A stretch of 42,136 nt of DNA, taken from the NCBI GenBank assembly GCA_024276075.1, contig JAJRXX010000010.1:1-42136 (forward strand), in the 5' to 3' direction. A program made the translations under genes and the position numbers. The DNA is from Planctomycetota bacterium. Its GTDB lineage: Bacteria; Planctomycetota; Phycisphaerae; Phycisphaerales; Phycisphaeraceae. Every line of letters begins with the position of its first letter. Within the stretch, counting starts at the first letter, position 1. Under the pieces are notes generated by a model. That model was not told the DNA's origin. It did not search any database and worked only from the letters and a program-made list of their open reading frames with translations. Of this stretch, positions 3,755-20,696 are shown one piece after another.

Positions 3755-4915
3755 TCACCACCCAACCCACGCGGCGGGGTTAAGCTTTTCATCGACTAAG
3801 CCGGCTTGCCCCAGTGCGACTAAGCCGGCCAGCAGAACGACGAGAATCACCGCAAAGGCAAGCGCCGCTCGTAACCCGGCTGATTTGGCTGTGCCAGTGA
3901 CGGGGTTTTGTGCCGCGGGGCCACCATTCACCGGGTTGGCATGATTCGGTGTCGGCTGCCCCGGTGACGACTGGCCCCGGCGTGACGCGTCGATCCGCTG
4001 TCTGACCTTCTCAACGAATGGTTCGTCGAGGTTGTAGGGTATCTCACTGGTCAAAGGTGTCTTGCTGGGCAAAATCCGTATGCAAGAAACCTGTGACCCA
4101 ACCTGTTTACCAAGGATCAGGTCAACCCAGGATTCACCCAGGGGGAAAAAGGCCAACATAGGGACCGGCACCGGGCCAAACTGGTCGATCAATAGTTGGG
4201 TCCATTGCAGCAATGCCTGATGCGGCGAATCAGTACAAGCCGGTACTCGGATGTGCTTGGCACGGCTGGTCGTGCCCGCCTGCGACCCACGATGACCAAC
4301 CACCTCGCGATCGATCTGATAAAGGATGCGCATGAGCCCCCGTGCATTCTCCCCCATCTCGGGGTGCTCCGCCAGACGTGCTAACAGGTTCGGCGGACAG
4401 GGTGGATCGGCTGCCATCGAGTCGACTTTTTCCGCAAGAGCCTGAACCTCCCGCTGAGCTTGCTCAACGGTAGACACGACTGTCTGGGCAGACTCGGATG
4501 CGGCACAGGTCTTTTCGATGTGCTCAAAACGAGGCAGGAACTCACTGAGGCACCACGCCAAGGGTAGGTTACGACAGTGTGCACACACGACCATCGGGTA
4601 GCGTGTACGGCCCTTGCCGTCTCTCGACGACCAGACCCTGCCCAGAACCAAACCGTCTGTGGTGCGCCAGAGAAACAGGTGCCTGAAGCCGTCCAAGAGT
4701 TGGTCGGGCTCGAGCCGATCCCAAGCGCCCGAATCGATGCTGCCACCGATCCCTTCGACGTAAAGGACCCGCTTGACCTCAATGAGGCGCTCGGTCATCT
4801 GGCCGATGTCGGGGATATGGTCGTCCCACCCGGGGTGCTTGCCAAACGCAACGAGGGACACCTCCGGCTGACTGGCTTTGCGGGCTGTACCGGAGCGATT
4901 GAAGATGTTTAGCAT
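3755..4915 (-). CDS. tagF: T6SS-associated protein TagF (ImpM-like) with C-terminal membrane anchor
   Basis: A 386-residue protein. The N-terminal domain has LVAFGKHPGWDDHIPD (residues ~26-41), corresponding to the FGKLPSxGDF entry of TagF/ImpM, then FLWRTTDGLVLGRVWSSRDGKGRTRYPMVV, the GRxxRxxPL-type strand pair of the family. TagF is known as a negative post-translational regulator of T6SS assembly and is sometimes fused to the phosphatase PppA; no phosphatase is fused here. Unlike the usual short soluble TagF, this one continues through a Pro-rich linker into a transmembrane helix (~350-371) and ends inside a 15-residue tail. It is the last gene of the tagH-like/tssK/tssL/tssM/tagF unit, 48 bp after tssM. 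The shine-dalgarno is weak. Confidence 0.82.
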   Translation of the reverse strand: MLNIFNRSGTARKASQPEVSLVAFGKHPGWDDHIPDIGQMTERLIEVKRVLYVEGIGGSIDSGAWDRLEPDQLLDGFRHLFLWRTTDGLVLGRVWSSRDGKGRTRYPMVVCAHCRNLPLAWCLSEFLPRFEHIEKTCAASESAQTVVSTVEQAQREVQALAEKVDSMAADPPCPPNLLARLAEHPEMGENARGLMRILYQIDREVVGHRGSQAGTTSRAKHIRVPACTDSPHQALLQWTQLLIDQFGPVPVPMLAFFPLGESWVDLILGKQVGSQVSCIRILPSKTPLTSEIPYNLDEPFVEKVRQRIDASRRGQSSPGQPTPNHANPVNGGPAAQNPVTGTAKSAGLRAALAFAVILVVLLAGLVALGQAGLVDEKLNPAAWVGW

Positions 4916-4963: not shown

Positions 4964-7900
4964 CTATTGCTTTACCTGGGGCCAATCGCTCTCGGTAGGC
5001 CAGGCGTCAAGTTTCGGGACTGGACGGCTGAATTTCAACCCGATCCAGTAGTAATACCGAACACCGGCCATGTCCTTGAGGATCAGACACACCTTCCAAA
5101 TCTGCTTGTCCTTGTCATCGGAGACGGCGTCGAAAGCGTGCAGTGCTTTGATCAAGGTCCACGGTGCATCAGCCTCGGCGATGGCGTCGGCGTGCTTTGA
5201 CTGCTCGTGATGGAAAAATTGTATCGACACGTTTTTTCCGGGTATCGTCACCTTGGGCAGATCGCCGCTGGGCGGGTTGTCGGTCTGCATGCGCCCACCG
5301 ACTCGGCGGTCTCCGGCGTGCACCTCGAAATAGCGGTGCGGCGTGAGCGGCGCATCACGCAGATCGACGCCGGGGATGTTGGGTCTGTTTTTCTGTTCTG
5401 TAAAGGGTAGTACAAAAACCTCACAGGTCAGCGGCGGAGAATTGGCCAGCGCGTCGCCGACCGCGGCGATACGCTTGTACCATGCCCCGTGCCCACCCAC
5501 CGCCAACGTCCTACCGGTTGATAGTAATCTGAGCATCTGGTCCCGGACCTCTTTGTAGAACCCACCTCCGACGCCCTGCTTAATCAGTGCACCCAAACCC
5601 AGGGCCACTTCGTCGTCGGAGCCTTTGAGTTGGCCCAGTAGTTCTAGCGCACGCTGCGCCTTGTCGGCGGCTAATTCCTGACGCAGGTCTTTGGTTCGAC
5701 AGAACGGAAACGCTTTATACGCTTCGGCAAGCTCCCCAACAGCATCGACGCCCCCCCGATAGACCTCGTCGGCACGCCGGTGCATGTCGAAGTAAATCTC
5801 GTATAGCATCGCGTCACCCCGAGGCGCTTTGGCCATCAACAGCCGGGCGAGCTTGGGCAACTCGTCCTCGAGCCCAGTGATTAACTTCTGCGTGTTTCTC
5901 TTGAGCGTTTCTCGGCCGCCTGCGAGCTTGCTGCGTATCTTGCCTATGCGTGTCCGAACGTTATCGTCAAGGTCTTTTCGCCCCTCGTCAGAGAGCACCT
6001 CGAGCAAACGATCGTAAGCAGGCAGCGCGCCATCGATGAGCACCTGATTGCGTGCCTGCTCGCAAAGTTTGTCGATCTGCTGTTTTTCGACCGCTTGTTC
6101 GATCTGATCACCGAGCGCGAGCCTCGCGGCGTCCACCTGCTTTTTGGCTGTGAAGATCGTATCGATCCATCGGCGCCAATCATCGGCGAAAACAGACACC
6201 CCCAGTGGATTTACACCGGCCTGAAGATCATCGCCGAGCCGACTAATCTGAGTCTGGCCTTTGTGGAACGAATCGAGCCCCGTCTGTAAAAGGACGAGCT
6301 GGGACAACAGATTGTCCGCACCCGATTCAACCTCATTACCCCATTGTCCTACAAACGCATCGACGCCGTTCTCAATGGCATTCAAAACTTTTTCGGGGTT
6401 AACCGCCAGCATCTGCGGCGGCCAGGCCTGACGCCCACCTTTGCTCGAATAAAGCCACCGGAGCGTGGTTTGCAGCGATTCGCTGTCGGCTTTGTAGCTG
6501 TTGTACTGGTCTTCGTCATTGTCTCTGACCAATGCGTAACGAAAAAGTTTATCGAGACTCGTATTGTCGGGGTGATCCTCCGCACCGACACCCGAGGGCT
6601 CACTGGCGGAAATAACTTGCAGGTAAGCCATTTCCGTTAATGCGTCGGTCGCGGCGGGCGACCACTGGTCGCCGGTCGCGGCTGAGAGCTTTGCCGTCAC
6701 GGCGTCGAACAACGGCTCTAGAAAACTGCTTTCAAAAAGCACCCGCATGGCTCGGCGGCGGCTGTCGTCAAAGCCCACCGTCGTGATGCTCCTGAACAGC
6801 TTTAACGGCTGAAAAATCAGGGGCGTTGAGATTTTTTTCTCCGCCACGACCTGCAAGAAAAACGGCATCTGGCCGAACGTCGTCGTGTCATCGCCCAGCG
6901 TTAATTTGATGTTGCCGTTGTACTCGTAGGGGCTACCCGGGAACGCCTGATCCACCACGCGCATCGGGTTTCCCGCGGGTGTAACGAACCGCTTGCTCAG
7001 GTCGTTCCATATCGCCTGCTGATCGCCGATGCTCCGCTTGAACGAGCTGGCACCGTAAACGGTCAGCAGCAAGAGCAGCACGAGGCTGCCGAGCCCGCCG
7101 CCCAGGATCACCCCTTTGCGCTGGCGTTGGAGTTGTCTCGTGTTCGAGGCACGGGTGACCAGTCCTTTTTCAACGAAGACCTTTTTTAAGAACAGCTCGC
7201 GCAGAAAATAGGCGCGGTCCTTTTCCCAGACACGCCCCTCGGGCAATGAATCAACTTCCACGCCCAGAACGTTAGCCAAATCGGCATCGAGTGCTGATCC
7301 CTCGCGCATCGCGGAGGTGAAGTAGATGCCCCGCAAAAACAGCGGCTTGGCAGACCACTCACCGGCGACAAAAATCATCTCGAGGTAGCGACGCAGCCGG
7401 GGCGCCAGGCTCAACAAAGCATCGGGGAACGCAAACAGCGCGTCGATCTGATCGGTACGGCGAGCGTTGGAATCTTCGGAGTGAACCGGATCGAGTAGCA
7501 GCCGCATACGCCGGCGGACCAGGCGCTGCCCGACTTCTTCGAGGTGCTGATCGACCTCGGAGGGGTCAAAAGTTTCGTCAAGAGAATTGGGATTTGACCA
7601 TCCAAGGACTTGGCCTTGAAGGGCGGGGTCGGTCAGGTCCTCGAAAAACTCACGGAACCCATTGATCAGATCGCATTTCGTGATCATGATAAAGACGGGA
7701 AACCGAACGCCCAAGGCTCGCTGAATGTTGTCGAGTTGCTGCGCGATCTTGCCGCCCTTGCGCTCCAGATCGTCTGCGGTGTCCTTGATCAGGCTCTCGG
7801 CGGATATGGTTAGAAGCATGCCGTTGATCGGGCAGTTTGGCCTGCTGCTACGCAGCAATTTAAGGAACGCTTCCCACTCGCTGGTGCCGCCCGGGGGGAC

Positions 7901-8443
7901 TTCCTCGAACATCAGCCTGCCTGCGGTGTCGATGATCACGCCGTGGTTGGTGAACCACCAATTCATGTTCATCGTGCCGCCGGTGCCTTGGAGTTGGTCT
8001 TGTAGACCAGGCGGAAAGCCCACGCTGCTGTGGCGAATGGCTTCGGTCTTACCGGAGCCGGGCTCGCCGACCAATGCGTACCACGGCAGGCTGTAAAGGT
8101 TTTTCCCCGCGGCACGGAATTTTTCAATTCCCTCTTCAAACTTTCTACTCAAATCGTCGAGGCGGGCGACGCTGGCGGGCTCGCTGATGCCCTGAGGGGT
8201 GGCTGTGGCGTTGCTCTTGAGTCCTTGCTCCATGGGCGCGGCTTTGCGCTTGCGTTGCCACTGGAGGAAGTAGCCGTACGCCACCAATGCCATCGCCACG
8301 ATTACCAACCCGATCATGATGACCCAGAAATGTGCGGGGAAGATCAGGTAGATCACCCCCAGCAACGAACCGCCCCCTAATACCCCCGAGGCAATCTTCA
8401 GGGGCATGGGCAGATGGGCAAACGAGGACAGTGAGAAATTCAT
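4964..8443 (-). CDS. tssM: T6SS inner-membrane complex protein TssM (IcmF/ImpL)
   Basis: 1159 residues, the normal TssM length. Two membrane helices (~15-35 and 40-60) flank a short loop. The cytoplasmic NTPase-like domain follows with Walker A GEPGSGKT (126-133), Walker B-like GVIIDTAGR (168-176), and TKCD (255-258). The family signature RGIYFTS is at 371-377, and a third helix lies at ~445-465. The remaining ~690 residues form the periplasmic part that contacts the TssJ lipoprotein. TssM, with TssL, makes the trans-envelope channel on which the baseplate docks. Walker A looks intact, so nucleotide binding is plausible. The ATG start overlaps the tssL stop by four bases (ATGA, 8440-8443), indicating coupled translation. 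Confidence 0.97.
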   Translation of the reverse strand: MNFSLSSFAHLPMPLKIASGVLGGGSLLGVIYLIFPAHFWVIMIGLVIVAMALVAYGYFLQWQRKRKAAPMEQGLKSNATATPQGISEPASVARLDDLSRKFEEGIEKFRAAGKNLYSLPWYALVGEPGSGKTEAIRHSSVGFPPGLQDQLQGTGGTMNMNWWFTNHGVIIDTAGRLMFEEVPPGGTSEWEAFLKLLRSSRPNCPINGMLLTISAESLIKDTADDLERKGGKIAQQLDNIQRALGVRFPVFIMITKCDLINGFREFFEDLTDPALQGQVLGWSNPNSLDETFDPSEVDQHLEEVGQRLVRRRMRLLLDPVHSEDSNARRTDQIDALFAFPDALLSLAPRLRRYLEMIFVAGEWSAKPLFLRGIYFTSAMREGSALDADLANVLGVEVDSLPEGRVWEKDRAYFLRELFLKKVFVEKGLVTRASNTRQLQRQRKGVILGGGLGSLVLLLLLTVYGASSFKRSIGDQQAIWNDLSKRFVTPAGNPMRVVDQAFPGSPYEYNGNIKLTLGDDTTTFGQMPFFLQVVAEKKISTPLIFQPLKLFRSITTVGFDDSRRRAMRVLFESSFLEPLFDAVTAKLSAATGDQWSPAATDALTEMAYLQVISASEPSGVGAEDHPDNTSLDKLFRYALVRDNDEDQYNSYKADSESLQTTLRWLYSSKGGRQAWPPQMLAVNPEKVLNAIENGVDAFVGQWGNEVESGADNLLSQLVLLQTGLDSFHKGQTQISRLGDDLQAGVNPLGVSVFADDWRRWIDTIFTAKKQVDAARLALGDQIEQAVEKQQIDKLCEQARNQVLIDGALPAYDRLLEVLSDEGRKDLDDNVRTRIGKIRSKLAGGRETLKRNTQKLITGLEDELPKLARLLMAKAPRGDAMLYEIYFDMHRRADEVYRGGVDAVGELAEAYKAFPFCRTKDLRQELAADKAQRALELLGQLKGSDDEVALGLGALIKQGVGGGFYKEVRDQMLRLLSTGRTLAVGGHGAWYKRIAAVGDALANSPPLTCEVFVLPFTEQKNRPNIPGVDLRDAPLTPHRYFEVHAGDRRVGGRMQTDNPPSGDLPKVTIPGKNVSIQFFHHEQSKHADAIAEADAPWTLIKALHAFDAVSDDKDKQIWKVCLILKDMAGVRYYYWIGLKFSRPVPKLDAWPTESDWPQVKQ

Positions 8444-9198
8444 GTGTCAGAATCCTGGTTTGCGGTGTGTCTCGATCCGGTGGTCTGGCCGGGGACAGGA
8501 GCGGGTTGTGTTTCAAGGCTCGAAATATTGTCGAGCGCGCCGGTCAACTCCGCGGTGCCACGGTGGTAGAGGTATATGTTGCCCACCATCAATACCACGA
8601 TCAAAACCAGCGACGCGATCCCAATGGCTACCAGGCTCTTGCCGGGCGGCTCGATCAGGTCGTCGGTGTTAATACAAAGCTCCGCTTCGCTGATGATCGG
8701 GGTTTTTTCGTCCGCGTCGATCATGTTACGCAGGCGGGCTGAGCACTCCATCATTTTCTTGCGCAGGTATTCGGGTTGCCCGGCGTACCAGCCCGTAAAA
8801 CCCATCCCGATAAACGTGTAGTACAAGGCGATGCGCTCATCCGCCGCTTCGCCCCGCTCGGCTAACGTCTCGTCGAGCAGGTCCCAGAACTTTTCGTCGC
8901 CGGCGAGTTCGTTGTATTTGTCTGCGGCGATCTCGTTCCACTCGGCTGCGAAGGGCAGCTTGCTCTCCTTAATCATAAAATCGACGAAGAACGCCAGGAT
9001 CAGCTCCATCTTCCCCTTGTCTTTGTCCATCTGGCCGACCAGCGTCGGGTCTGCTGCCGCCTTTGATAGGGCCTCGGCAAACATGCCTTCGATATCGGCG
9101 CGGACACGGACGTGCTCGATGGTGGCACCCTTGCGGGCGGATCGATTCAACCGGCACACATACTGACACAGCGGTTCGCACAGTTCTAACAGCGTCAT
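8440..9198 (-). CDS. tssL: T6SS inner-membrane complex protein TssL (DotU/ImpK)
   Basis: 252 residues with the single-pass, C-tail-anchored topology of TssL. A helical cytoplasmic hook domain covers ~1-185, including ILAFFVDFMIKES (67-79) and YTFIGMGFTGWYAGQPEYL (127-145, the LGFxGxY region). One membrane helix lies at ~188-211, and a ~40-residue Ser/Thr/Pro-rich periplasmic tail follows. There is no OmpA-like peptidoglycan-binding domain on TssL, and no separate TagL-like gene in the window, so cell-wall anchoring must come from elsewhere. It overlaps tssK by ATGA (9195-9198) and tssM by ATGA, a tight K-L-M block. Confidence 0.95.
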   Translation of the reverse strand: MTLLELCEPLCQYVCRLNRSARKGATIEHVRVRADIEGMFAEALSKAAADPTLVGQMDKDKGKMELILAFFVDFMIKESKLPFAAEWNEIAADKYNELAGDEKFWDLLDETLAERGEAADERIALYYTFIGMGFTGWYAGQPEYLRKKMMECSARLRNMIDADEKTPIISEAELCINTDDLIEPPGKSLVAIGIASLVLIVVLMVGNIYLYHRGTAELTGALDNISSLETQPAPVPGQTTGSRHTANQDSDT

Positions 9199-10637
9199 TC
9201 TTGAGCGTCTCCACTAGGCACTGTCATAAACAATTTAACTTCATAATCTGCTTCCTCGTCGCCTTGCCAACGGATCGCCAATTCCTTTTCATGCGTGATT
9301 TTATCCCACATCCGCTTGCTGTCGGCGCGCATCAATCGGAAGTAGTGCAGCCCGACGGATGAAGGCAGCTCCAACGGCGGGTGGCGCTCCTCGACGAGCT
9401 TTACGCCGAAGATGCGTTGGTTGACCATTGTCTTAGCCATGAGCTTGAACCTGTCGCCGTCCTCGACGAGTTTGGCTAATTCGCGAGGGTCCTGCTTGGT
9501 GGTCACGCCCAGGAAGTACTCGTTGGGCTTGGTCAACTGCTCCTCGGACAACGCAGTGACCAGGATATCACCTTCCTTGGCAAACTCGGCTTTCATAAAG
9601 CTGGGCGCCACGGCACCACGCAGCAGCGAGCGAATCTTGGAAGATAGTTCGTTGAAAACAATCGCGGGGTTGTCGTGGTCATAAGGGCCAATCTCAAACT
9701 GATCACGGTCCGGGTGCAGCGCAGCTAACTCTCCCAGGAGCTCACGCAGCTCCAGGTATATGGTAAACGGCGACGTGCCCGCTGCCCTAATCAGAGACGG
9801 TAGGCGTGCGCTAAAACGGTTGAGCGTGCGTAGCCTCAGTATCTGCTCGACCTGCCGACCACGGATGGTGTCGATACTAAAGCCACCCCGGGTCAACTGC
9901 ACGACCAACTCTTTGCGGCTGGCTTCGACCTGAAACGCCAAATCGCGAGCCATGTCACGGAGCGTGGGCGACCCGCCCAGGACCAGACAAGGCGGGACGA
10001 AGGCAGGGTCCTGCTTGGGCATGCCCACGTCTTCACCTGTGGCGTGCATGATGCGCAGGAGCGGTATGACTTCGATATCGCCAAGGTCGTCGTCATCGAA
10101 CAGCAACCTAGCGTTGATCCGACGGACCTGGATTGGGCGGAGGTTTTCGCCGGTGTTCTCATCGGGCCTTTCGATCTCGGATACCCGGTATATCTGTTTG
10201 ACCTGCCAATCGTCTTCACCAGAGTGCTCGATGGTGTTACCCCGTGTGGCGTACCATAAGGGCACCGCTAGACACACGGTAAACGGCTGACTGCTGGCGG
10301 CGAACCGACGCTTGATGTCGAGTGCGGGCAGGTCGGCATTATCAGGGAATGACACGTCGACCCCGCTGGGCATGATCACCCGCAAACGGTCGAACCGCAC
10401 GAGCATGTTTTCCAAGGCGTCGGGCGACAGGCTCGCCTCAACCACGCCATAGGGGTAGGGCCATCCCAGGTGACGCTCGGAAGCACCCTGCGTGTTGATC
10501 TGGCGCTGGAGGTGTTGAAAATGGTGTGGCTGAAGGAACAGCCCCTCGTGCCAATGAATCTGCACCGACGGAGCAGCTGAGGTTCTCGTCGACTCCGAAG
10601 AACTGTCTTTGTCTGTCTGATCTGTCTTATCAGGCAC
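9195..10637 (-). CDS. tssK: T6SS baseplate protein TssK (ImpJ/VasE)
   Basis: 480 residues. The hallmark IHWHEGLFLQPHHFQ (residues 27-41) matches the family W-x-EGMFLxPQHFQ. The ~350-residue shoulder domains follow, and the C-terminal receptor-binding-like head ends GLHYFRLMRADSKRMWDKI. TssK links the TssEFG baseplate wedges to the TssL/TssM cytoplasmic domains. The GTG start at 10637 is supported by AGGGAG eight bases upstream. It is followed directly by tssL. The first ~25 residues are charged and Ser/Thr-rich, a small extension ahead of the normal family start. 192 bp of non-coding DNA separates it from the TagH-like gene. Confidence 0.96.
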   Translation of the reverse strand: MPDKTDQTDKDSSSESTRTSAAPSVQIHWHEGLFLQPHHFQHLQRQINTQGASERHLGWPYPYGVVEASLSPDALENMLVRFDRLRVIMPSGVDVSFPDNADLPALDIKRRFAASSQPFTVCLAVPLWYATRGNTIEHSGEDDWQVKQIYRVSEIERPDENTGENLRPIQVRRINARLLFDDDDLGDIEVIPLLRIMHATGEDVGMPKQDPAFVPPCLVLGGSPTLRDMARDLAFQVEASRKELVVQLTRGGFSIDTIRGRQVEQILRLRTLNRFSARLPSLIRAAGTSPFTIYLELRELLGELAALHPDRDQFEIGPYDHDNPAIVFNELSSKIRSLLRGAVAPSFMKAEFAKEGDILVTALSEEQLTKPNEYFLGVTTKQDPRELAKLVEDGDRFKLMAKTMVNQRIFGVKLVEERHPPLELPSSVGLHYFRLMRADSKRMWDKITHEKELAIRWQGDEEADYEVKLFMTVPSGDAQE

Positions 10638-10829: not shown

Positions 10830-11765
10830 TCACTGTCGATCCAGTCCCCGCATCGAACCTACAAAGTTCGCAATGATCTTCTTAATCTCCTGGTCAACCA
10901 GTGCTGCGTCGTCGAAGGTCTTTGCGAGTTCGGTGTACTTACGCCAACACTTGATCTCCTTAGCAACCAAAAACCCTCCCGGCTCCAACGCCGCGGCGGC
11001 TTCGATCTCATTGGGTGCGAATCGAGAGAGGTACTGCTGCCCAAACTGCGAACCAATCCCGCTGATCGCCGAGAGCAGCCCGGCTACCAAGTATCGCATC
11101 TGTTCCAAGTCACGGGTCAGCGGCGCGTCCGAATCACCCCGTACAAAGCTCAGGAGTGTATCCTGCAAACTCGCGGCGCTGCGTACCGCGGATTTGGGTG
11201 ATATTTCTTTCCAGATTTGCCAAGACAGCTTATCGAGGCTGCTGACAAATCCGACCAAGTGTGCTGCCATCTCGACCACCCGCTCAGCGTTGATCGTGTC
11301 ACCTGAATCCAACTTCAGCTTAGCTCTAAGTTCATCCGTGGTTTTTTGAGAAGCACCCAAGTCGCCCGACGCGGATAGCCCCGCTTTGGAGAGACGCGAG
11401 ATCATCCCCTGCTTCTGATCGGCGGGCATGTCCTTTGCCAATTCGACCAATCGTTCAAGGACAAACGTCGGGTCGCTCCATTCCTGTTCGTCAGCGGGCG
11501 AAGGGGATGCGTGACCGTCATTACCCGATTGACCGATTGCTGCCATATTGGCGTCCCACGAAGGGAAGTTCTCTCCCAACGCTTCGAGGAAGGCGCTACG
11601 CTGGTCGGGCATGAGTGTGGATAAGGCACGCTGCACTTCGTCGGAGAGGTACTCCTGCCGCGTCTGGTCGTCTTGGTCTGCAAAATCAGCCTGTATCTGG
11701 CGTAGCCGATTGGCCGTAGCGGCGACCCGTTGAGCCAAATCTGTATGCGCTTCAGGCATGCCCAC
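10830..11765 (-). CDS. TagH C-terminal-domain-like protein without an FHA domain
   Basis: A 311-residue, mostly helical, acidic soluble protein. The last ~75 residues (FAPNEIEAAAALEPGGFLVAKE... with KCWRKYTELAKTF) resemble the C-terminal domain of T6SS FHA proteins (TagH/Fha), which has an ...F.P..IE.......G......K.A..W..Y.E... pattern. This is a motif-level match by eye. No N-terminal FHA domain is visible: the first 100 residues are helical and low-complexity. In other T6SS the FHA protein binds phosphothreonine downstream of PpkA, so this form should not read phosphorylation that way. It heads the tssK-tssL-tssM-tagF unit. The GTG at 11765 has AGGG six bases upstream; the ATG at 11759 is an alternative. 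It could be an unrelated helical T6SS accessory. Confidence 0.5.
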   Translation of the reverse strand: MGMPEAHTDLAQRVAATANRLRQIQADFADQDDQTRQEYLSDEVQRALSTLMPDQRSAFLEALGENFPSWDANMAAIGQSGNDGHASPSPADEQEWSDPTFVLERLVELAKDMPADQKQGMISRLSKAGLSASGDLGASQKTTDELRAKLKLDSGDTINAERVVEMAAHLVGFVSSLDKLSWQIWKEISPKSAVRSAASLQDTLLSFVRGDSDAPLTRDLEQMRYLVAGLLSAISGIGSQFGQQYLSRFAPNEIEAAAALEPGGFLVAKEIKCWRKYTELAKTFDDAALVDQEIKKIIANFVGSMRGLDRQ

Positions 11766-12382: not shown

Positions 12383-15300
12383 CTATTGACTGCTCGAATT
12401 CGACGTGGCGAGGTACCCATGCGCATCGAGCAGACGCCTGACCTGTCCTACAAGAGACTGACGGGGTGCGGAGAACACCAGCCGCATCCCCACATCGGCG
12501 TAGGCTTTGATATCGGATTCGATCGACACGGCTGCAGGTTTCTCTAAATCTGATAGCACCCCGGGTGGTGACTGTGCTGAACCGCCGATCACGCCCATAT
12601 CGTTTGGCTGTATCACCGCGCGTATCTGGGCCAACACGTCACCCCCACCAAGCGCGGAAATGTCCAAGGCTTCAAGGGCATCGGTGCGCTCGAAGACGTA
12701 TTCTGCGACGTTTCCGATCATGTGATGAAATACATTGCCCGGGGCGACCTTTTCCGGGGTGATCTGGTCGAACCACAAGACGCCGTCGTCGTAAGGGTAC
12801 ACTTCATCGTGCGTATCCGATTCCCAGAAGCCACCCGAGTTTGGCAGTTCGATGCGCACGCCTTGAGATTGAAGGTCCTGGACGTGCTTGTTCTGTTGGA
12901 GCCACGTGCTATCGCGCAGATTGGGATGCTGCTGATCGACGTACTGTTTCAGGGGTGAGCCGTTGGTTTCGACCGCCAGCGCCGCACGCCACTCCGCAGA
13001 CGAAGGCAGCCGACACCCCATCGTCCTAGCGAAATAGATCGCTCCCTCGGGCGAAATAAACTGCATCGGGAACGGTTCGTCGGGGCCCGCAGGCGTGTAG
13101 GGCTGACCATCGTCTTGGGAAAAGTAGTCTTCGATCTGCCCGCCGCCTGACTTGAGGCGAGTATCGGCAGGCATCCAGATCGGTTTCTTGCGGTAGTCAT
13201 TGGTCCGCAGACGGCCTTTGCGCCACTTCCACACCTTCGGACCATGCCAACTCGGATCGCCCACGACAGACTTAAGCTCGTCCCATTTACCCACGAACGA
13301 GATCGCGTCCTTGATCAGCCCCAGTGAGGTCTCGGTCGTGCTGATGTAAAACGATTTGGATACTTCATAGTTTGCCTCCACGCGGACAAACTGAAGCTCG
13401 TGGCGATCACCGCTGCGGGTCGTCCAGGCGTAGGTAATGCGAGAGCGGTCTTCGGATACCTCCTTCTTCCAAGACGGCTCGTCCCAAACCGGTGATGCTT
13501 CGGGCCCCGTCTTCGACAGGTCGACGTCGGTGTCTTGATCGCTTTGTTCTTTGTTAAGCACTTGCGTGATCTGGCCGAGCAGGTCGGTCACATCCTGTTG
13601 GCTGGCCATGTCGCTGGGTAGGTTGCGCTGGAACTGATCGACGGCTGACCGGACTTGGTCTTTCGTGGTGTTGTGAGGCAGGCCCGCGAGGCGCTGCTTG
13701 AATTTTGCCAAGTCGATATTAAACCGGGCCCACGTGGGTAGCCTGGACGCATCGACGTCGAACTGCGCCGACAGACGAACAGCCCGCTCAATGTTTTCGG
13801 GTTCACGCAGCCCCGCGAAGCAGCGTGCCCACCGCTGGTGGCCCTCGGCACGCAGCCGATCGGTGAGGATCTGTTTCTGTGCGGGGTCCTCGATGCTGTC
13901 GCGGATCATGGCACCGAGCCATTGGCGCAATTCGTTTTCCTTCTGAAGCTGCTCGATGCCACTGGGCCAGTTCGACCCGGGCACTTTGTCGAGCTTACGC
14001 CAGGCGGCAAACGTAATCGCCGGCTCGAGATTGGCTTTGCTTTCCTCGACCCATCGCCGCAACGCAGCCGGGTCGTCCGATCGCTTAATCGCCGCCATCG
14101 TCTCGATCATACGGACGACGGGGCCCAATGATTCGCTGAATTGAACAAACAGTTTCCGTCCCCGCCATTGCTCGTGCAGGCGTCCCAACGACTCTTTGTA
14201 CCCTTGGGGGACATAGGCGAGGTCATAAGCGTTATCCAACGCCTGCTCGATCACCCTGAAATCGTCCATGATGGCTGCGACTTGATCGCGCCATGCCTGG
14301 TAATCCTGTTGCAGGTTTTTCCATCTGGACGCATCCGATGCCACGGACCAGTTTATTTGTCCGCGTAACCAAGGGCCAAACGCATCGAGCAGCGTCTGCT
14401 CTCGCTTGGCGGCCACGGCTTTCACCGCCAGGTCCATACTCCAACCACGAGGGTGCGACCGGCCCGGCACCGTGCCCGAAAGTGAGTCGGTCTGACGACG
14501 CAGCTCGGTGCGCAACGCGCTGACAGCATCTTGTAGCTCAATCAGCGCCAATGGGCTTGCGATCAATTCCTGACGCCGTTTGCGCCAAACTTCGTTAACC
14601 ACCGGCGACGAGACCCCCTCGACCCGTGGCGGTGACGAGACGGCTGTAGCGTAGATCGTGCGCAAAGACGATTGGAGTTGAGCCACCTGCTGCTCGATCC
14701 CGCTCTTGCTCTGCTGGTCCCAGGGCTGACGCAAAAGGTCGGCGACTTCCGCTTTGGCGGATTCCACCTGAGGTGCCAAGGCACGCGCAGTGGTTTTGTC
14801 GTTGCCCTCGAGCCACCGTATCTCACTGTCGATCTCACCTAGCGCCCAATCCCAACGGACCTGTAGCCGAGGGTCGAGCTTGGAGTAAACGGATTGATAG
14901 AGCAACTCGATGGATTGTCGTTTGGCGCGGATTTCGTTGAGTATCCGCTGATGGTTTTGCGGGTTCCAGGTCGGCTGTAAGCTGGCAGTCAATCCGGTTG
15001 CCAACGCTTGGATTTGTTGCCTAAAGCTGCCGACCTGCGTATCCCCACGAGCTTGCAATTCCGTGATCCCTGTCCGGATATCCGCGACTCGGCTTTGGGC
15101 AATCGGCTTCCAAACCGCGCGCGGGTCTAGCTGACTGTAAAATTGATCGAGCTTCTGGTCTAGATCACGCACAGACGCTCTGATGGTTGACCGCTCTTGC
15201 GGGTCATCAGGCCAGGGCTGGGCGAATAGTTGCTGCTTCTGTGCCTTGATCTGCTGGTATTGATTTTCAAACTTAGAGGCGCTCGCATCAGCCAATTCCC

Positions 15301-17041
15301 CTCGGAAAGCGAGAACCGCGTCGATCTGCCCAGCTAACCGAATCCATTTTTTCTCGAACAGATTACGCTGGTCACTGATCACCCGCCCAGCAATCTCGTC
15401 GAGTTGATCCTGTAGCGTGCGCTGCCGCTGCTCGATGTCTTCACGGGTGTCGGGCGACCAAACGAGTTGGGCATCGGTCAATTTATTTATTTCGTTACGC
15501 AGCGAGGCGAATCGGCTCTGCAACTTCCGCGCGTCGCTGGGGTCCATGGCCCCGTTTGAAGGCTGCGACAACTCTTGTTCAATCATGCCCGTGAGCGACT
15601 GCCATTGCCAATACAGCCGGGGGTCTAGCCGCTCAAAAACGCGCTGTTCAAGCTCGTCGAGTTGCCCCGCCACGGTGCTCGCCACACGCTGGGCTTGGTC
15701 GCTGTAAGCAGCAATCCAGGGATGGCGGCGGAAGCTTTCGGTGAGCGTATTGTTAACCGCGTCGAACTCACTCTTGTGCGCACTCGCAAGCGCCTCATCA
15801 AACCGCGATAGCTGATCGATCTGACTCATTAAGTCCCGCGCCCGGTCAGCGGATGCCTGCCTCGGGTCGGTCCCCGGCTGCGGACGTGTCAACTCACCGA
15901 TGCGTTGATCGATCTGCTGGTTGGTCTGGTCAAGTGCCAGGCTCAGATCGGAGACGTTACTTTCGATTTTTCTCTGGTTTAGCCTAACCCAATCAAGCTT
16001 GAGCAATTCGCCTATCTGCTTTGTGTAGGTGCGCAGGCTGTCCTCAATGGTGCTGGCTGTGTGATCGTCGTTATAGGTTCGTAATTCATTAACCTTGTCC
16101 CGTATGCGGCTGATCTGAGGTATGGCGTCGATGCGGCTGGACGAGTTCCAGGCCAATCTTGGATCGGACACCGTCGGCGGGGTCAACAAAAAGTCCTTGA
16201 CCTGGGTCATCAAGCCCGACAGTCTTTTTTGGACCGCCACAACACCACGTGTGACCTGTTCGATTTGGACACCCTCGCCGGTGAGGCTCAAGGGCGTCCG
16301 CAGGCTGCTTCGTGATCGGCTCAATTGCTGGGCAAAGACCTCGACGGCCTCGTCACTGCCGAACTGCTCGTGTATCTGATCCAATTCGTTCTGAATCGAA
16401 ACGATCACGCCGCTACATTGACTGACGTATTGCTCAAGGTCAAGCAGTTCCCGGATCCTGCCTCGGAGACTGACAAAGTCATCGCCTTCATCAAGGTCGG
16501 CTCTGTTGCCAAGGTAACCAGCCACAAAACCTAGGAACTGACCACGGAACTCGTCGTCCTGTCGGGGCTCGGGCTCGTCTAGACGAAACAAGCTCGATAG
16601 CTCCGCATAGCTGTGAAGAATTCTGTCAAACCCGGTGACGAAGTCTTTTTTTTGACCGCTGCCTAGCCAGCCTAGTTTTGTCTGCTCCACCAGCCCCGTG
16701 AGGTACTGCGAGGGGCCGTCCCAACCCAGGTCGTCGTATTGTTCGATTCGTTGCTTAATGGCGACCAGCGCGGGCCAACCCGTCAGTGCCCCCTCGACCG
16801 CGTCGACGATCTGGTACGCAGCGGCGGTCTTGCGGATGATATCGGGCGAACTCGCTTCCTCGGGAACCGGGTCTATCAGTGTCTTGCGTGCACCACCGCG
16901 TCCCACCATTTTTCCGGGATCAATTAATCCCGGCTCGGTCACTTTTTTCAGGTACTCCAGAACTATCTCTAAACCGCTGCCCTTCTCGCCCCATGCGTCG
17001 AGCCGACCCTCCAGGTACGCCAAGTAGTACAGCCGCCCCAT
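12383..17041 (-). CDS. Giant helical-repeat protein with C-terminal FGE-sulfatase (SUMF1) domain, TagR-like
   Basis: 1552 residues in two parts. Residues 1-~1200 are Gln/Arg/Asp-rich helix with tandem modules of 83-84 residues. The sequence LDPRxxW recurs at ~472, 638 and 722, with a diverged unit near 555, and each module carries a [P]W site followed by a helix ending in Y. Residues ~1228-1530 form an FGE-sulfatase/SUMF1 domain: SFYISTTETSLG (family F-I-x-x-x-EVT), RLPSSAEWRAAL (~1344-1355), GNVAEYVFE (~1443-1451) and the closing VGMRLVF. Catalytic cysteines are not evident, so it is more likely a binding domain than a formylglycine former. In Pseudomonas, TagR is a periplasmic SUMF1 protein that stimulates PpkA. 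This protein has no signal peptide and no shine-dalgarno, and its frame runs unbroken back to the TAA of the kinase-like gene (see findings). It lies just after that gene. Confidence 0.85.
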   Translation of the reverse strand: MGRLYYLAYLEGRLDAWGEKGSGLEIVLEYLKKVTEPGLIDPGKMVGRGGARKTLIDPVPEEASSPDIIRKTAAAYQIVDAVEGALTGWPALVAIKQRIEQYDDLGWDGPSQYLTGLVEQTKLGWLGSGQKKDFVTGFDRILHSYAELSSLFRLDEPEPRQDDEFRGQFLGFVAGYLGNRADLDEGDDFVSLRGRIRELLDLEQYVSQCSGVIVSIQNELDQIHEQFGSDEAVEVFAQQLSRSRSSLRTPLSLTGEGVQIEQVTRGVVAVQKRLSGLMTQVKDFLLTPPTVSDPRLAWNSSSRIDAIPQISRIRDKVNELRTYNDDHTASTIEDSLRTYTKQIGELLKLDWVRLNQRKIESNVSDLSLALDQTNQQIDQRIGELTRPQPGTDPRQASADRARDLMSQIDQLSRFDEALASAHKSEFDAVNNTLTESFRRHPWIAAYSDQAQRVASTVAGQLDELEQRVFERLDPRLYWQWQSLTGMIEQELSQPSNGAMDPSDARKLQSRFASLRNEINKLTDAQLVWSPDTREDIEQRQRTLQDQLDEIAGRVISDQRNLFEKKWIRLAGQIDAVLAFRGELADASASKFENQYQQIKAQKQQLFAQPWPDDPQERSTIRASVRDLDQKLDQFYSQLDPRAVWKPIAQSRVADIRTGITELQARGDTQVGSFRQQIQALATGLTASLQPTWNPQNHQRILNEIRAKRQSIELLYQSVYSKLDPRLQVRWDWALGEIDSEIRWLEGNDKTTARALAPQVESAKAEVADLLRQPWDQQSKSGIEQQVAQLQSSLRTIYATAVSSPPRVEGVSSPVVNEVWRKRRQELIASPLALIELQDAVSALRTELRRQTDSLSGTVPGRSHPRGWSMDLAVKAVAAKREQTLLDAFGPWLRGQINWSVASDASRWKNLQQDYQAWRDQVAAIMDDFRVIEQALDNAYDLAYVPQGYKESLGRLHEQWRGRKLFVQFSESLGPVVRMIETMAAIKRSDDPAALRRWVEESKANLEPAITFAAWRKLDKVPGSNWPSGIEQLQKENELRQWLGAMIRDSIEDPAQKQILTDRLRAEGHQRWARCFAGLREPENIERAVRLSAQFDVDASRLPTWARFNIDLAKFKQRLAGLPHNTTKDQVRSAVDQFQRNLPSDMASQQDVTDLLGQITQVLNKEQSDQDTDVDLSKTGPEASPVWDEPSWKKEVSEDRSRITYAWTTRSGDRHELQFVRVEANYEVSKSFYISTTETSLGLIKDAISFVGKWDELKSVVGDPSWHGPKVWKWRKGRLRTNDYRKKPIWMPADTRLKSGGGQIEDYFSQDDGQPYTPAGPDEPFPMQFISPEGAIYFARTMGCRLPSSAEWRAALAVETNGSPLKQYVDQQHPNLRDSTWLQQNKHVQDLQSQGVRIELPNSGGFWESDTHDEVYPYDDGVLWFDQITPEKVAPGNVFHHMIGNVAEYVFERTDALEALDISALGGGDVLAQIRAVIQPNDMGVIGGSAQSPPGVLSDLEKPAAVSIESDIKAYADVGMRLVFSAPRQSLVGQVRRLLDAHGYLATSNSSSQ

Positions 17042-17083
17042 CCACTGGTCGAAAGCTTCGCATATTTTCGCCCACTTCTGCTG

Positions 17084-18004
17084 TTAGAAGACCAACACCT
17101 CACCGCCCTGGTCCGTCACGCCACTGCGCCACGGATACAGAATGCGCGATATTGCAGCCCCCTGCGGCAATGCGATTGCCCCTAGGCCATAGGCTGCGAT
17201 GATCACTCCCGCCGCAACCGCGGCTGTGGGTAACGCCCGGCGAGGCGGAGCCACAAGACGGGGCAATTCCTCTTGCGCCAATTGCTGCAGTGTCGGGCAT
17301 TGCTCGGCCAAATCCGGATCAAGCAGGCGGTTGCACAGGTCGCGCCACGCGTCTGCTTTTCGTCCTAAAAACGACCATCGCGGCGAGTCGGGCACCGGCC
17401 AGCCACCCATCACCTGAACCGGCTTGAGCAAGACCAAGTGATGGATCAACTCCCCCACCAGTTTTTGATCGATGTAGTCAACGGACTCGGCGTCGATCCG
17501 GGTCTCGGGCAGCGGGTCGCTCAACACCACCTTTGTCAGGACGCCGGGCTGAGGTTCGACTAATAGGACGTTGCCGACTTTGAGGTTTGCGTGAGGGCGG
17601 TCGCAGACACCGCGCATCTCGATCAGCGCGTTGACCACGCTGGTGATGATCGTGTGTAGCCTGTGTCCATCGAGCTTGACCTCGCTGAATATCAGTCGCT
17701 GCGCGGACCGGGGATAGAGGTCCGTGACGTAGTACGCCCCGCCATCAATGGGTTTGAATTCGTGTATCGGTGCCCAGTGTTCGGCACCACTTTCCGCGAC
17801 GACCTGCTGGGCGCGTGCCGCGTCGAGGAAACACATCACCCCCTGGCGGCGTGCTTTTGGGCTTAGATTTTCGGGCGGGGGCTCAAAGGACTTGACGACA
17901 TACTTCAACTCCGCATCGCCGTCGATGCGTCGAGCGACGGATACCGTGACAAAACCTCCCCGGTACAGTTCGCGTACGGCCTCGTAGCTACCGTAGGTCG
18001 CCAT
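17084..18004 (-). CDS. Membrane-anchored protein kinase homologue, probable pseudokinase (PpkA position)
   Basis: 306 residues with a recognisable Ser/Thr kinase plan. There is a weak Gly-loop (LYRGGFVTVSVARR, 13-26), a VAIK-like YVVKSF with Lys38, and a catalytic loop HANLKVGNVLL (138-148) in which the HRD Asp is Asn140 while Lys142 and Asn145 are kept. The metal-binding DFG region reads SDPLP (Asp163). One transmembrane helix (~259-279) is followed by a ~27-residue tail, so the kinase domain is cytoplasmic and the end periplasmic. This matches the kinase-TM layout of the T6SS regulator PpkA. Loss of the catalytic base suggests weak or no phosphotransfer. It lies between the TssJ-like lipoprotein and the SUMF1 protein. 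The following ORF is in the same frame, 14 codons after its TAA. No shine-dalgarno is clear at the ATG. Confidence 0.75.
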   Translation of the reverse strand: MATYGSYEAVRELYRGGFVTVSVARRIDGDAELKYVVKSFEPPPENLSPKARRQGVMCFLDAARAQQVVAESGAEHWAPIHEFKPIDGGAYYVTDLYPRSAQRLIFSEVKLDGHRLHTIITSVVNALIEMRGVCDRPHANLKVGNVLLVEPQPGVLTKVVLSDPLPETRIDAESVDYIDQKLVGELIHHLVLLKPVQVMGGWPVPDSPRWSFLGRKADAWRDLCNRLLDPDLAEQCPTLQQLAQEELPRLVAPPRRALPTAAVAAGVIIAAYGLGAIALPQGAAISRILYPWRSGVTDQGGEVLVF

Positions 18005-18050: not shown

Positions 18051-18644
18051 CTACTTTTGCGACTTGAGGGGTGTGGTGCAGATCGCCATGCTGCTCTTGA
18101 TGACGATCTCGATCCCACCGGTCCCCATAGGCCACGCTGAGCCTTTTAGAGGCAGTATCACGCGTCTGGGGTCTTGTGCGCTGGCCATGGCTGAGCCGCC
18201 GACGCCGGGGATATTTGCAATCACAAATAGCCATTTAGCGCCTTTGCCCGGTTCGCTGCTGCCAAATTTTTTGCCCACCCATTTACCCCAGACAGGGTTG
18301 TTGCTCTTGACGATCTTGTCCCTGCGATCGTTATTGGTAAACGTGACCGTGGTGCGGTCGGCGTCGCGTCGCAGCGGATCGTTTGGGCTGAAGTATTTGC
18401 TTACGGGATAGTTTTCCCACGTAGGTCTCTCGCTCTCGTTGATGCCGACCAGGTCTACTTCCAGCGAAGGCAACACGTCGCCGTACGCCTGACGCCAACT
18501 GACGTGATCGAGTACGACTTTGACCTGATAGGCTTTTGGGGACCCGGGCAGGAGCCCGCCGTATGGTGTACCAGAACAGCCGGTCACGCCCATTAACAAA
18601 GCAGCCACAATGACCCAAACGGGCATGCACATTTTTCGCGACAT
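18051..18644 (-). CDS. Outer-membrane lipoprotein, candidate TssJ
   Basis: 197 residues. The ATG at 18644 is picked over an upstream in-frame start (18671) because AAAGGAG lies at the right distance and the product begins with a lipoprotein signal: RK, a hydrophobic core, then VTGC with Cys23 and Ser at +2 (outer-membrane sorting in enterobacteria). The mature part reads as a beta-rich domain: AYQVKVVLDHVSW, then LPSLEVDLVGIN, then a loop region with KYFSPNDPLRRDADR. That order resembles TssJ, a transthyretin-like sandwich that binds the TssM periplasmic end, but the match is by layout only. It is larger than typical TssJ (about 150-170). No other gene in the locus fits TssJ better. It sits 46 bp upstream of the kinase-like gene. 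Confidence 0.5.
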   Translation of the reverse strand: MSRKMCMPVWVIVAALLMGVTGCSGTPYGGLLPGSPKAYQVKVVLDHVSWRQAYGDVLPSLEVDLVGINESERPTWENYPVSKYFSPNDPLRRDADRTTVTFTNNDRRDKIVKSNNPVWGKWVGKKFGSSEPGKGAKWLFVIANIPGVGGSAMASAQDPRRVILPLKGSAWPMGTGGIEIVIKSSMAICTTPLKSQK

Positions 18645-18716
18645 CAGACACTCCTTTTCACATTGACACACGACACGGGCGGATCGACGCTGCGCTACAT
18701 CTCGCCGAGTTGCCGT

Positions 18717-20696
18717 TCAACTTATTTCCTGCCCGACCATGTGCCTCCGCAAGACCGCGTGGACCTCACGGTTGAACTTCCAGTCTATAACAATCAGACT
18801 CCTCGTGCGCAACAATAACGACTCCAGGTCGCCGATCATCGGCTCAAACACCTGATGCAGCCCACCCTGACCCGCGTCGCTGAAGTCCCGACACGGGCAC
18901 CGGGGCACCACCCCGGGAAACGCACGCACGATCATCGCCAACACGCCCCACCACAACTGGGGGGGCACCACGTCAAAGGCCTCGCCCGGTTCGATCGAAT
19001 CAAAACCCAAACGATGAGGGCCAAGCGATCCGATCCAGCGGTCGTCCTGGGCAAACGCAGTACTGATCTGCGCCGTCAGGTCTCCCTCACCCCCGCAGCG
19101 CTGCCCCAGGCTCAAGACTTCGTCCAACGCCACGGAAAGCTTCGTATCGTCATCGACCAGCAGCGTGCGCACAGCGGTTACCCCTAACGCATACAGGTCG
19201 CAAGGCGAGCTGAGCATCGGCACCGTCTCGAACGGCACGTCTGCCATCAACACACCCTCCGCAGATGTTAATGCTTGGCGTGCCTGTTCGGGCAGGCTCT
19301 GCCCCACGGTGTGCAGTCGCCATTCCCCCGCCGCCATCGCCGACTCTCGGTCCAGGTGCGCGTACAGGTTTACCCTGCCATCCGCCAGATTCAGCCGCAG
19401 CCAAATGAGGTCGCTCCGGGCTGGCTCGAGCTGGTCCTGTGTGGTCAGTGTGCCCTCGAGTTTAAAAAGCCCTCCCTGCGTTTCGATGATCTTCCTGATA
19501 CGAACCGACCCCTTGCCCTGTACACGCCTACTAGCGGAGTTCGGGTGATAGACCGATGTGGCTTGGTCGGCGGGTAGGTGGTACTGATATTCGCTGGTTT
19601 GGATCGGCAAAGTGATGGCAGAACCGGGCTCGACCAGAGACGCCTTGGCGGTCCATAAAAAGGGCAGCGCACAGCCGGGGTCCTGGCCAAGACCTACGCC
19701 AAAGCTATCGGGTGTCAGGCTGAAAAACGGACGCTGGGTCTGTTGGGCGAAATCCCTCACAGCGCTGATGGCATCGGCGAGCAAACGCAGCTTCAGGTGC
19801 AGCGTCTCGATCAGGCGTCCCCGGCGCCCCATTCCGCCCAAGAATAGCCACCCGTCGGTGATACGGTGCTCGCCATCGTCACGCGATGCGTTTGAAGCCA
19901 AGCCGTCGATGCCGACCTCGAGTGTCGTGCGCCCGTGCTGCACGCCCTGCCACTGCCGCCCGCCCAGCAAATCCGCAAATGCCTCGAAGCCAATCGGAGA
20001 AAACGACCGGACCATCATCAATCCCCCCGCCCGGTTCAACGCGATCACCTTGGCATCGGCTGTGTCCGTGATGTCCGCCATCGGCTTGCATGCTTCGCTG
20101 GTGGGCGCCTCGGCGGTGACGGGTATAAACGGCGATGCCTCTCCCAATGCTGCGAGGTACAAATACCGGTGCAGCGAGGTGCTGTAGCGAGGCAGTTGCT
20201 TGGATTCCAATAATGCTTCGTCCGTACACAGTTCCCACGGGTGGTCCGACTGGGCGTCGTGCGGATGGATCGGCTGCATCGCGTCAAGGTCGATCAGCGT
20301 CGGCTTGGGGTGGCTGGTCTCCCACCCCGTGACGATCACGGAGCTGGGGTCCAACTGCTGGAATGATTCGAATTGTTCACGCCACCGCCGATCGAGCAGA
20401 TCATTGGTCAACGGCTGTGTAAACGCGGGAATGGCCAGGGGCAGCCCATCAAGGCACTGTATCCATATCTCCACCCACCGGTGCACGCGGCCTGAGATGT
20501 CTGTGACCGCGCCGAGCAACGCCTGAGCGTCTATCGTGTCGCGCAGCACGACCAGGTGCCCCGCGACGGCGTCGGGTTCGCGGCGTACCAGCACGCCGAT
20601 GCGCAAAGACGATGCCGCCTGGTCGCCGCTGATGGGTACCACGGAATAACCCTGCGGGACCTGCGGTCCTGCGTCGTGTTTGGCCCGCAATGTCAT
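18717..20696 (-). CDS. Unknown 659-residue T6SS-locus protein with kinase C-lobe-like motifs
   Basis: I do not recognise this as a named family. No signal peptide or membrane helix is seen, so it is probably cytoplasmic. Two segments recall the C-lobe of protein kinases: RPFFSLTPDSFGVGL (~322-336), placed like a catalytic loop but without the HRD and Asn residues, and SPCDLYALGVTAVRTLL (~497-513), close to the SDVYSLG helix F motif. Between them lies a ~150-residue beta-rich insertion (VRIRKIIETQGGLFKLEGT and following). If this reading is right it is a second, fully degenerate pseudokinase beside the gene at 17084-18004. It is the first gene of the unit leading to the TssJ-like, kinase-like and SUMF1 genes. 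It has AGTAGG just before the ATG, and a long inverted repeat fills its leader. Confidence 0.6.
   Translation of the reverse strand: MTLRAKHDAGPQVPQGYSVVPISGDQAASSLRIGVLVRREPDAVAGHLVVLRDTIDAQALLGAVTDISGRVHRWVEIWIQCLDGLPLAIPAFTQPLTNDLLDRRWREQFESFQQLDPSSVIVTGWETSHPKPTLIDLDAMQPIHPHDAQSDHPWELCTDEALLESKQLPRYSTSLHRYLYLAALGEASPFIPVTAEAPTSEACKPMADITDTADAKVIALNRAGGLMMVRSFSPIGFEAFADLLGGRQWQGVQHGRTTLEVGIDGLASNASRDDGEHRITDGWLFLGGMGRRGRLIETLHLKLRLLADAISAVRDFAQQTQRPFFSLTPDSFGVGLGQDPGCALPFLWTAKASLVEPGSAITLPIQTSEYQYHLPADQATSVYHPNSASRRVQGKGSVRIRKIIETQGGLFKLEGTLTTQDQLEPARSDLIWLRLNLADGRVNLYAHLDRESAMAAGEWRLHTVGQSLPEQARQALTSAEGVLMADVPFETVPMLSSPCDLYALGVTAVRTLLVDDDTKLSVALDEVLSLGQRCGGEGDLTAQISTAFAQDDRWIGSLGPHRLGFDSIEPGEAFDVVPPQLWWGVLAMIVRAFPGVVPRCPCRDFSDAGQGGLHQVFEPMIGDLESLLLRTRSLIVIDWKFNREVHAVLRRHMVGQEIS

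What the first reader, a model, noticed from the sequence alone, without database searches (positions are those of the whole stretch)
16990..17130. Kinase-like and SUMF1 giant ORFs are one reading frame divided by a single TAA
The TAA at 17086-17084 that ends the 306-residue kinase-TM protein is followed, in the same frame, by 14 sense codons (QQKWAKICEAFDQW) and then the ATG at 17041 of the 1552-residue protein. Those 14 codons look coding and read smoothly into MGRLYYLAYLEGRLDAW. The ATG has no shine-dalgarno, and the second protein has no signal peptide, although its SUMF1 relative TagR is periplasmic. A single kinase-TM-coil-SUMF1 product of ~1,870 residues would solve both problems, because the transmembrane helix at 259-279 would place the coil and SUMF1 domain in the periplasm. 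The TAA could be a recent nonsense mutation, an assembly error, a read-through site or a real boundary.
Basis: partly seen in the sequence, partly recalled or inferred. Interest (0 to 1): 0.7.

Follow-up and report, generated by a model that had tools for sequence, protein, structure and literature searches.

The report
T6SS membrane protein split by stop
Two neighbouring genes in a planctomycete type VI secretion cluster are the two halves of what is a single long membrane protein in its relatives, here cut in two by one stop codon, most likely a recent mutation.

Summary
That layout alone is ordinary: 36 ORF pairs divided by one in-frame stop, this one included, were found in 687 kb of the genome. 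Relatives decide. The syntenic locus of Phycisphaeraceae MAG OFTM12 holds one 1862-residue ORF spanning both. In 40 fetched regions, 32 frames carry both ends; none shows the window's split. Of 86 other genomes with the kinase-like domain, 78 have it in frames of 1196 residues or more, 7 are cut by contig ends, 1 is disrupted elsewhere. The 14 codons encode a conserved W..LC.A...W motif; ATG 17041 falls just after it at a variable position. Two arguments change: the missing Shine-Dalgarno is uninformative, and the kinase domain lacks the catalytic Asp in 33 of 33 sequences, so it is probably a pseudokinase. A recent nonsense mutation is most likely; base error, functional split and read-through follow in that order. 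No reads were available.

The parts
17084..17086 (-). in-frame TAA that divides the gene
   Evidence: its alignment column is Asp in 14 of 15 relatives, 1 gap
17084..18004 (-). ORF 1: 306 aa, pseudokinase-like domain and one transmembrane helix, ending 27 residues after the helix
   Evidence: profile of the domain matches kinase StkP, E 5.2e-9
17168..17224 (-). predicted transmembrane helix (residues 261-279)
   Evidence: Kyte-Doolittle scan
17042..17083 (-). 14 sense codons between TAA and ATG, holding the conserved motif W..[LI]C.A...W
12383..17041 (-). ORF 2: 1552 aa, long helical/coil region (inferred) and C-terminal SUMF1-like domain, no signal or TM segment
12452..13855 (-). conserved C-terminal SUMF1-like part (Pfam FGE-sulfatase match at ORF residues 1324-1404, E 4.5e-6)
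12383..18004 (-). whole ancestral reading frame: pseudokinase-TM-coil-SUMF1, 1873 codons counting the TAA, plus the final stop
   Evidence: single 1862-aa ORF at the syntenic place in OFTM12
18051..18671 (-). upstream neighbour, 206 aa, one-to-one with 216 aa in OFTM12
18717..20696 (-). upstream neighbour, 659 aa, one-to-one with 663 aa in OFTM12
10830..11765 (-). downstream neighbour, 311 aa, one-to-one with 329 aa in OFTM12
4964..10637 (-). TssK, TssL (DotU), TssM of the same T6SS cluster
3755..4915 (-). FGKHPGW-domain protein with C-terminal TM (386 aa); in other genomes this head is fused to a coil-SUMF1 tail

Best explanation
The two ORFs are one ancestral gene of a conserved T6SS-linked family found mostly in this order of Planctomycetes: a cytosolic pseudokinase head, one transmembrane helix, a long periplasmic arm and a SUMF1-like tip. 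In this genome a single TAA, most likely a recent nonsense mutation in the sampled lineage, ends translation just after the membrane helix. What is made is a membrane-anchored pseudokinase head without its periplasmic arm; the arm and tip, if translated at all from ATG 17041, would stay in the cytosol. Shown: the one-gene ancestry. Inferred: topology, the sensor role (by analogy with PpkA and TagR), and that the TAA is a real and recent mutation rather than a base error.
For: Single 1862-aa ORF in OFTM12, 43% identical along its length, with seven flanking genes one-to-one. 32 relative frames carry both end profiles without interruption. 78 of 86 other genomes have the head in frames of 1196 aa or more; of the other 8, 7 are contig-cut and 1 is disrupted inside the kinase domain. 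Within the family, the 4 other carriers among 51 genomes have it in 1473-1872-aa frames. The 14 codons are coding-like and carry the conserved motif. ATG 17041 sits at a variable internal column. No further stop in the 1566 codons after the TAA, and no excess of changes in the SUMF1 part compared with OFTM12 (12 window-only against 15 OFTM12-only departures from the 50% consensus), so any loss is recent. No TTA-anticodon tRNA among the 45 found. TAA ends 134 of 405 ORFs of 200 aa or more.
Against: No reads, no second strain and no protein data. Only one genome of its genus appears among the 51 held of the family, so polymorphism cannot be tested. The long open downstream frame with near-normal constraint also fits a base-call error or a still-functional split. 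In the coil, window-only departures are somewhat more than OFTM12-only ones (20 against 9, sign test p 0.06). One weak head-profile match without the SUMF1 end (L044, G009, 552-aa frame, E 4e-9) was not examined; G009 did not pass 1e-10.
Confidence: 0.68

Rival explanations
1. The TAA is a consensus or assembly base error; the organism has the intact gene.
For: The genome is a fragmented assembly (77 contigs). Downstream constraint looks near normal and no second lesion is present. Relatives contiguous over the junction are intact.
Against: No sign of general errors: seven flanking orthologues have near-equal lengths, T6SS genes match nearly full Pfam profiles, and in 20 of the 32 other stop-divided pairs outside the window no best-scoring Pfam stretch crosses the stop (4 of the 20 had no match at all).
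Confidence: 0.17
2. The split is real and functional: the head-TM half works alone, and the arm half is made separately or dispensed with.
For: The FGKHPGW protein of the same window ends soon after its TM helix without a SUMF1 tail, while in ten frames of other genomes the same head is fused to coil-SUMF1: a head-TM form without the arm exists in this lineage for the sister architecture.
Against: No stand-alone head-TM form of the pseudokinase was seen in 86 other genomes, though 7 of these are cut by contig ends. ATG 17041 cuts a conserved motif and yields a 1552-aa protein with no export segment, unlike the 47 relatives in view.
Confidence: 0.11
3. Leaky or programmed read-through of TAA gives some full-length protein.
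For: One stop only, coding-like sequence directly after it, both sides open.
Against: The stop is absent from the 15 aligned relatives and from the 32 two-ended frames; TAA is a normal stop here (134 of 405); no TTA anticodon among 45 tRNAs (the genome is about 96% complete).
Confidence: 0.03
4. Two genuinely separate ancestral genes that happen to share a frame.
For: Such layouts are common in this genome: 36 pairs in 687 kb.
Against: One ORF in the relatives contiguous over the junction; a conserved motif lies in the gap.
Confidence: 0.01

Closest known systems
PpkA-TagR branch of the T6SS threonine phosphorylation pathway (Pseudomonas aeruginosa)
   Same: A T6SS-linked kinase-fold domain, one membrane helix, and a periplasmic SUMF1/FGE-type protein thought to act on the kinase's periplasmic side (PMC6082577 and PMC10482370, passages seen; a passage of PMC13411936, lists TagR1 as FGE-sulfatase domain protein).
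   Different: Here kinase-like head and SUMF1 tip are one chain joined by a roughly 1000-residue arm; the head lacks the HRD Asp in 33 of 33 sequences, so phosphorylation is unlikely; no FHA or PppA domain was seen in the window ORFs scanned (not every ORF was scanned).
PpkA-RtkS of Serratia marcescens
   Same: A periplasmic partner binds the periplasmic part of a membrane kinase and controls it (PMC6082577, passages seen).
   Different: Two proteins there, one chain here; no sequence comparison was made.
Formylglycine-generating enzyme (SUMF1)
   Same: C-terminal domain matches PF03781 (E 4.5e-6).
   Different: No Cys in the conserved GGSA.S-like block of any of 16 rows (read; the active-site Cys pair of FGE is recalled), so not expected to be an active FGE.
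TagF, and the Agrobacterium TagF-PppA fusion
   Same: T6SS regulators that occur as fusions, tagF often lying after tssM (PMC10482370, passage seen); the window's FGKHPGW protein lies right after tssM. The likeness of its FGK motif to TagF is recalled.
   Different: PF09867 (TagF_N) does not match the FGKHPGW domain, so it is not filed as TagF.

Membership tests
single gene broken by a nonsense codon | orthologues intact across the position | tested here: met
single gene broken by a nonsense codon | stop present in the living population | not testable with these tools
   no reads and no second strain; only one genome of the genus appears
single gene broken by a nonsense codon | further decay after loss | tested here: inconclusive
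   no other stop in 1566 codons; SUMF1 part 12 against 15 lineage-only departures, coil 20 against 9, p 0.06; if lost, then recently
programmed read-through or reassigned stop | stop conserved in relatives | tested here: not met
   0 of 15 aligned relatives
programmed read-through or reassigned stop | decoding tRNA with anticodon TTA | tested here: not met
   0 of 45 tRNAs found
PpkA-type T6SS kinase | Hanks-type kinase domain | tested here: met
   family profile matches StkP and other kinases by sequence; Pfam and NCBIfam gave no match for the window protein itself; the AlphaFold model was too poor to use
PpkA-type T6SS kinase | catalytic HRD Asp | tested here: not met
   0 of 33 sequences
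PpkA-type T6SS kinase | one TM helix after the kinase domain | tested here: met
   (hydropathy only)
PpkA-type T6SS kinase | phosphorylates Fha or TssL | not testable with these tools
   needs biochemistry
TagR-type SUMF1 protein | SUMF1/FGE domain in a T6SS locus | tested here: met
TagR-type SUMF1 protein | separate periplasmic protein with its own signal | tested here: not met
   fused in relatives; no signal or TM segment in the window ORF
TagF | PF09867 TagF_N match in the FGKHPGW protein 3755-4915 | tested here: not met

The most novel reading that the evidence does not exclude
The T6SSs of this planctomycete order use one-chain transmembrane sensors in which a pseudokinase head or an FGKHPGW head is wired through the inner membrane to a long coil-SUMF1 arm, and the arm can be shed: in this species a stop codon turned the pseudokinase version into a stand-alone head-TM protein that still works, as the FGKHPGW head already does in this lineage.
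Probability: 0.12. Interest if true: 0.6.

Novelty: new variant of a known kind. Interest (0 to 1): 0.38.

Why it matters
It replaces two odd hypothetical genes by one defined, conserved membrane protein of planctomycete type VI secretion, with an architecture that joins in one chain what PpkA and TagR do as two proteins. Annotating the two halves apart would mislead: the SUMF1 half would look cytosolic and the head would look like a small lone kinase. The stop codon itself is of local interest only, unless the shed arm proves to be functional.

Tried and rejected
Missing SD as evidence: rejected, since SD is weak in this genome. In-frame adjacency as evidence: rejected, since it is common. 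Suppressor tRNA: searched, none among 45. Stand-alone heads elsewhere: the short frames in G378, G352, G390, G275, G315, G292 and G376 run off contigs; G360 loses homology at profile position 208 and looks chimeric or rearranged, not split at the junction. AlphaFold models of the head with junction and of the SUMF1 part had mean pLDDT 33.7 and 35.3 from two-row alignments; no fold search was run on them. TagF identity of the FGKHPGW protein: not supported by profile. First genome-contig scan found no relative. Literature: searches for T6SS with Planctomycetes/SUMF1, Planctomycetota, Phycisphaer, pseudokinase, FGE-sulfatase/protein kinase, and for Pkn1 listed no paper whose title or shown abstract start describes such a protein; most listings were capped and only passages of seven papers were seen (six papers; one further id is not held), so this is weak evidence of absence from print.
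Full report
Observation. The minus strand reads ...GEVLVF, TAA (17086-17084), QQKWAKICEAFDQW, ATG (17041), with no other stop down to 12383. The first ORF is 306 aa, the second 1552 aa. Pfam finds only the SUMF1 (FGE-sulfatase) domain in the second (E 4.5e-6) and nothing in the first.

Chance. In 686,561 bases of the same genome (window included) I called 546 greedy ORFs of 100 aa or more and found 36 pairs divided by a single in-frame stop, this pair included; for scale there were 327 same-strand adjacent pairs, 174 of them within 100 nt. The layout alone is therefore unremarkable. The 14 codons do look coding: log-odds 2.41, against a mean of 2.60 for in-frame and -2.27 for off-frame 14-codon stretches, 3rd of 22 comparable gaps. 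Absence of a Shine-Dalgarno sequence says little: 24% of 241 ATG-start ORFs have one, and the first ATG (18004) has none either.

Relatives. The downstream protein matches 40 of 201 genomes searched, the window's own included. The best other match is G012; its contig C39 and the record JAJDCS010000044.1 (MAG Phycisphaeraceae bacterium OFTM12) have the same length of 127,494 bases and the record matches the G012 protein at 100%, so I take them as one. It has one ATG-started ORF of 1862 aa that covers both window ORFs, 43% identical. Around it, seven genes pair one-to-one in order with window ORFs of 386, 1159, 252, 480, 311, 206 and 659 aa (397, 1159, 238, 474, 329, 216 and 663 aa in OFTM12). 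I fetched 40 regions from relatives, which cover most but not all of the matches, and searched them with profiles of the two ends built without the window: 32 frames carry both ends (15 of them had also gone into the profiles), 18 carry the SUMF1 end only (the window's second ORF is one of them), 2 carry the head end only: the window's first ORF, and one weak match (L044, E 4e-9, 552-aa frame) that I did not examine. Searching the head profile in 51 genomes of the family gave 5 carriers: four with frames of 1473-1872 aa, and the window with 314. In 400 genomes of the order, 87 carry it, the window included; of the other 86, 78 have it in frames of 1196 aa or more. Of the remaining 8, seven run off contig ends and one (G360) loses homology inside the kinase domain. 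In those 78 the SUMF1 end was checked directly only where the region was among the 40 fetched; elsewhere the frame length is the evidence. A phylum sample of 392 genomes gave 6 carriers, two of them outside the order, with frames of 2107 and 1387 aa.

The junction. In the 16-row alignment the TAA column is Asp in 14 of 15 relatives (1 gap), though placement beside gaps is uncertain. The 14 codons hold positions that in the 15 relatives are W (11), L (10; window I), C (7), A (7) and W (13); the ATG column is F, L, Y or V in 13 and a gap in 2. ATG 17041 is thus an internal codon just after the conserved second W. Of the 49 relative frames with the SUMF1 end I left out two cut by a region or contig edge (L034_18773, L037_3). 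The other 47 have a hydrophobic segment in their first 620 residues (45 at Kyte-Doolittle 1.6 or more over 19 residues; the other two 1.57 and 1.49); the window's second ORF peaks at 1.15 there. A separately made second half would be the only one of these without a membrane or export segment.

Head and tip. The head is related to Hanks kinases (StkP E 5.2e-9) but the HRD Asp is absent in 33 of 33 sequences (N 16, R 8, A 4, E 3, V 1, M 1), and the DFG place reads D-P-x in most (D 29, P 28 of 33), so it is probably a pseudokinase. The tip has no cysteine in the GGSA.S-like block in any of 16 rows (read), so it is unlikely to be an active formylglycine-generating enzyme (active site recalled). 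The setting is a nearly full T6SS cluster: ImpA_N, TssB, TssC, Hcp, ImpE, gp25, TssF, TssG, ClpV-like ATPase, VgrG, TssK, TssL, TssM; TssJ and PAAR were not identified among the ORFs scanned.

What the stop is. Against a reassigned or programmed stop: none of the 15 aligned relatives has it, TAA ends 134 of 405 ORFs of 200 aa or more, and none of the 45 tRNAs found reads TAA. Against old decay: no second stop, and the SUMF1 part has no more lineage-only departures from consensus than OFTM12 (12 against 15), though the coil has somewhat more (20 against 9, p 0.06). Against a generally faulty assembly: intact neighbours, and 20 of the 32 stop-divided pairs outside the window tested in Pfam, with no best-scoring stretch crossing the stop (16 of the 20 had any match, one of these mainly TPR repeats on both sides; lesser stretches are not printed). 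A recent nonsense mutation fits best; a base error cannot be excluded without reads.

Mechanism. By analogy with PpkA and TagR, where a periplasmic SUMF1-type protein is thought to act on the periplasmic part of a membrane kinase (PMC6082577 and PMC10482370, passages seen), the intact protein would sense envelope events with its arm and tip and pass them through one helix to a pseudokinase head at the T6SS base. This is inference. In the window organism the head would be cut off from its sensor.

A second architecture. Ten SUMF1-end frames carry an FGKHPGW head instead of the pseudokinase head, each with a TM helix. The window and OFTM12 have that head as a separate protein that ends soon after a hydrophobic segment. 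So arm-less head-TM proteins occur in this lineage, which keeps the functional-split reading alive at low probability.

Noticed in passing
3755-4915 (-); L033, L034, L039, L040, L042, L048, L050, L053, L062, L069: An FGKHPGW-domain protein with a TM helix, stand-alone in the window and OFTM12 but fused to coil-SUMF1 in ten frames of other genomes. Position after tssM and the FGK motif (recalled) suggest TagF, but PF09867 does not match.
   Followed up: partly
L085:18528-19445 (G000 contig C15): Two short ORFs (148 and 138 aa) divided by a TAG with the most coding-like gap of 22 examined; no Pfam match, possibly another stop-split gene.
   Followed up: partly
L162:658-1572 (G360): A pseudokinase head whose frame turns into a membrane-protein-like sequence without family homology, near a contig start: chimera or rearrangement.
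   Followed up: partly
L036:4859-7117: A 753-aa coil-SUMF1 frame with no head but a signal-peptide-like N-terminus (KD19 1.49), perhaps a free periplasmic, TagR-like form.
   Followed up: no
36112-42126 (-): 2004-aa ORF reaching close to the contig end, with DUF5649 repeats, upstream of the T6SS genes.
   Followed up: no
21232-21861 and 21911-22504 (-): Two adjacent DUF6931 proteins inside the T6SS cluster.
   Followed up: no
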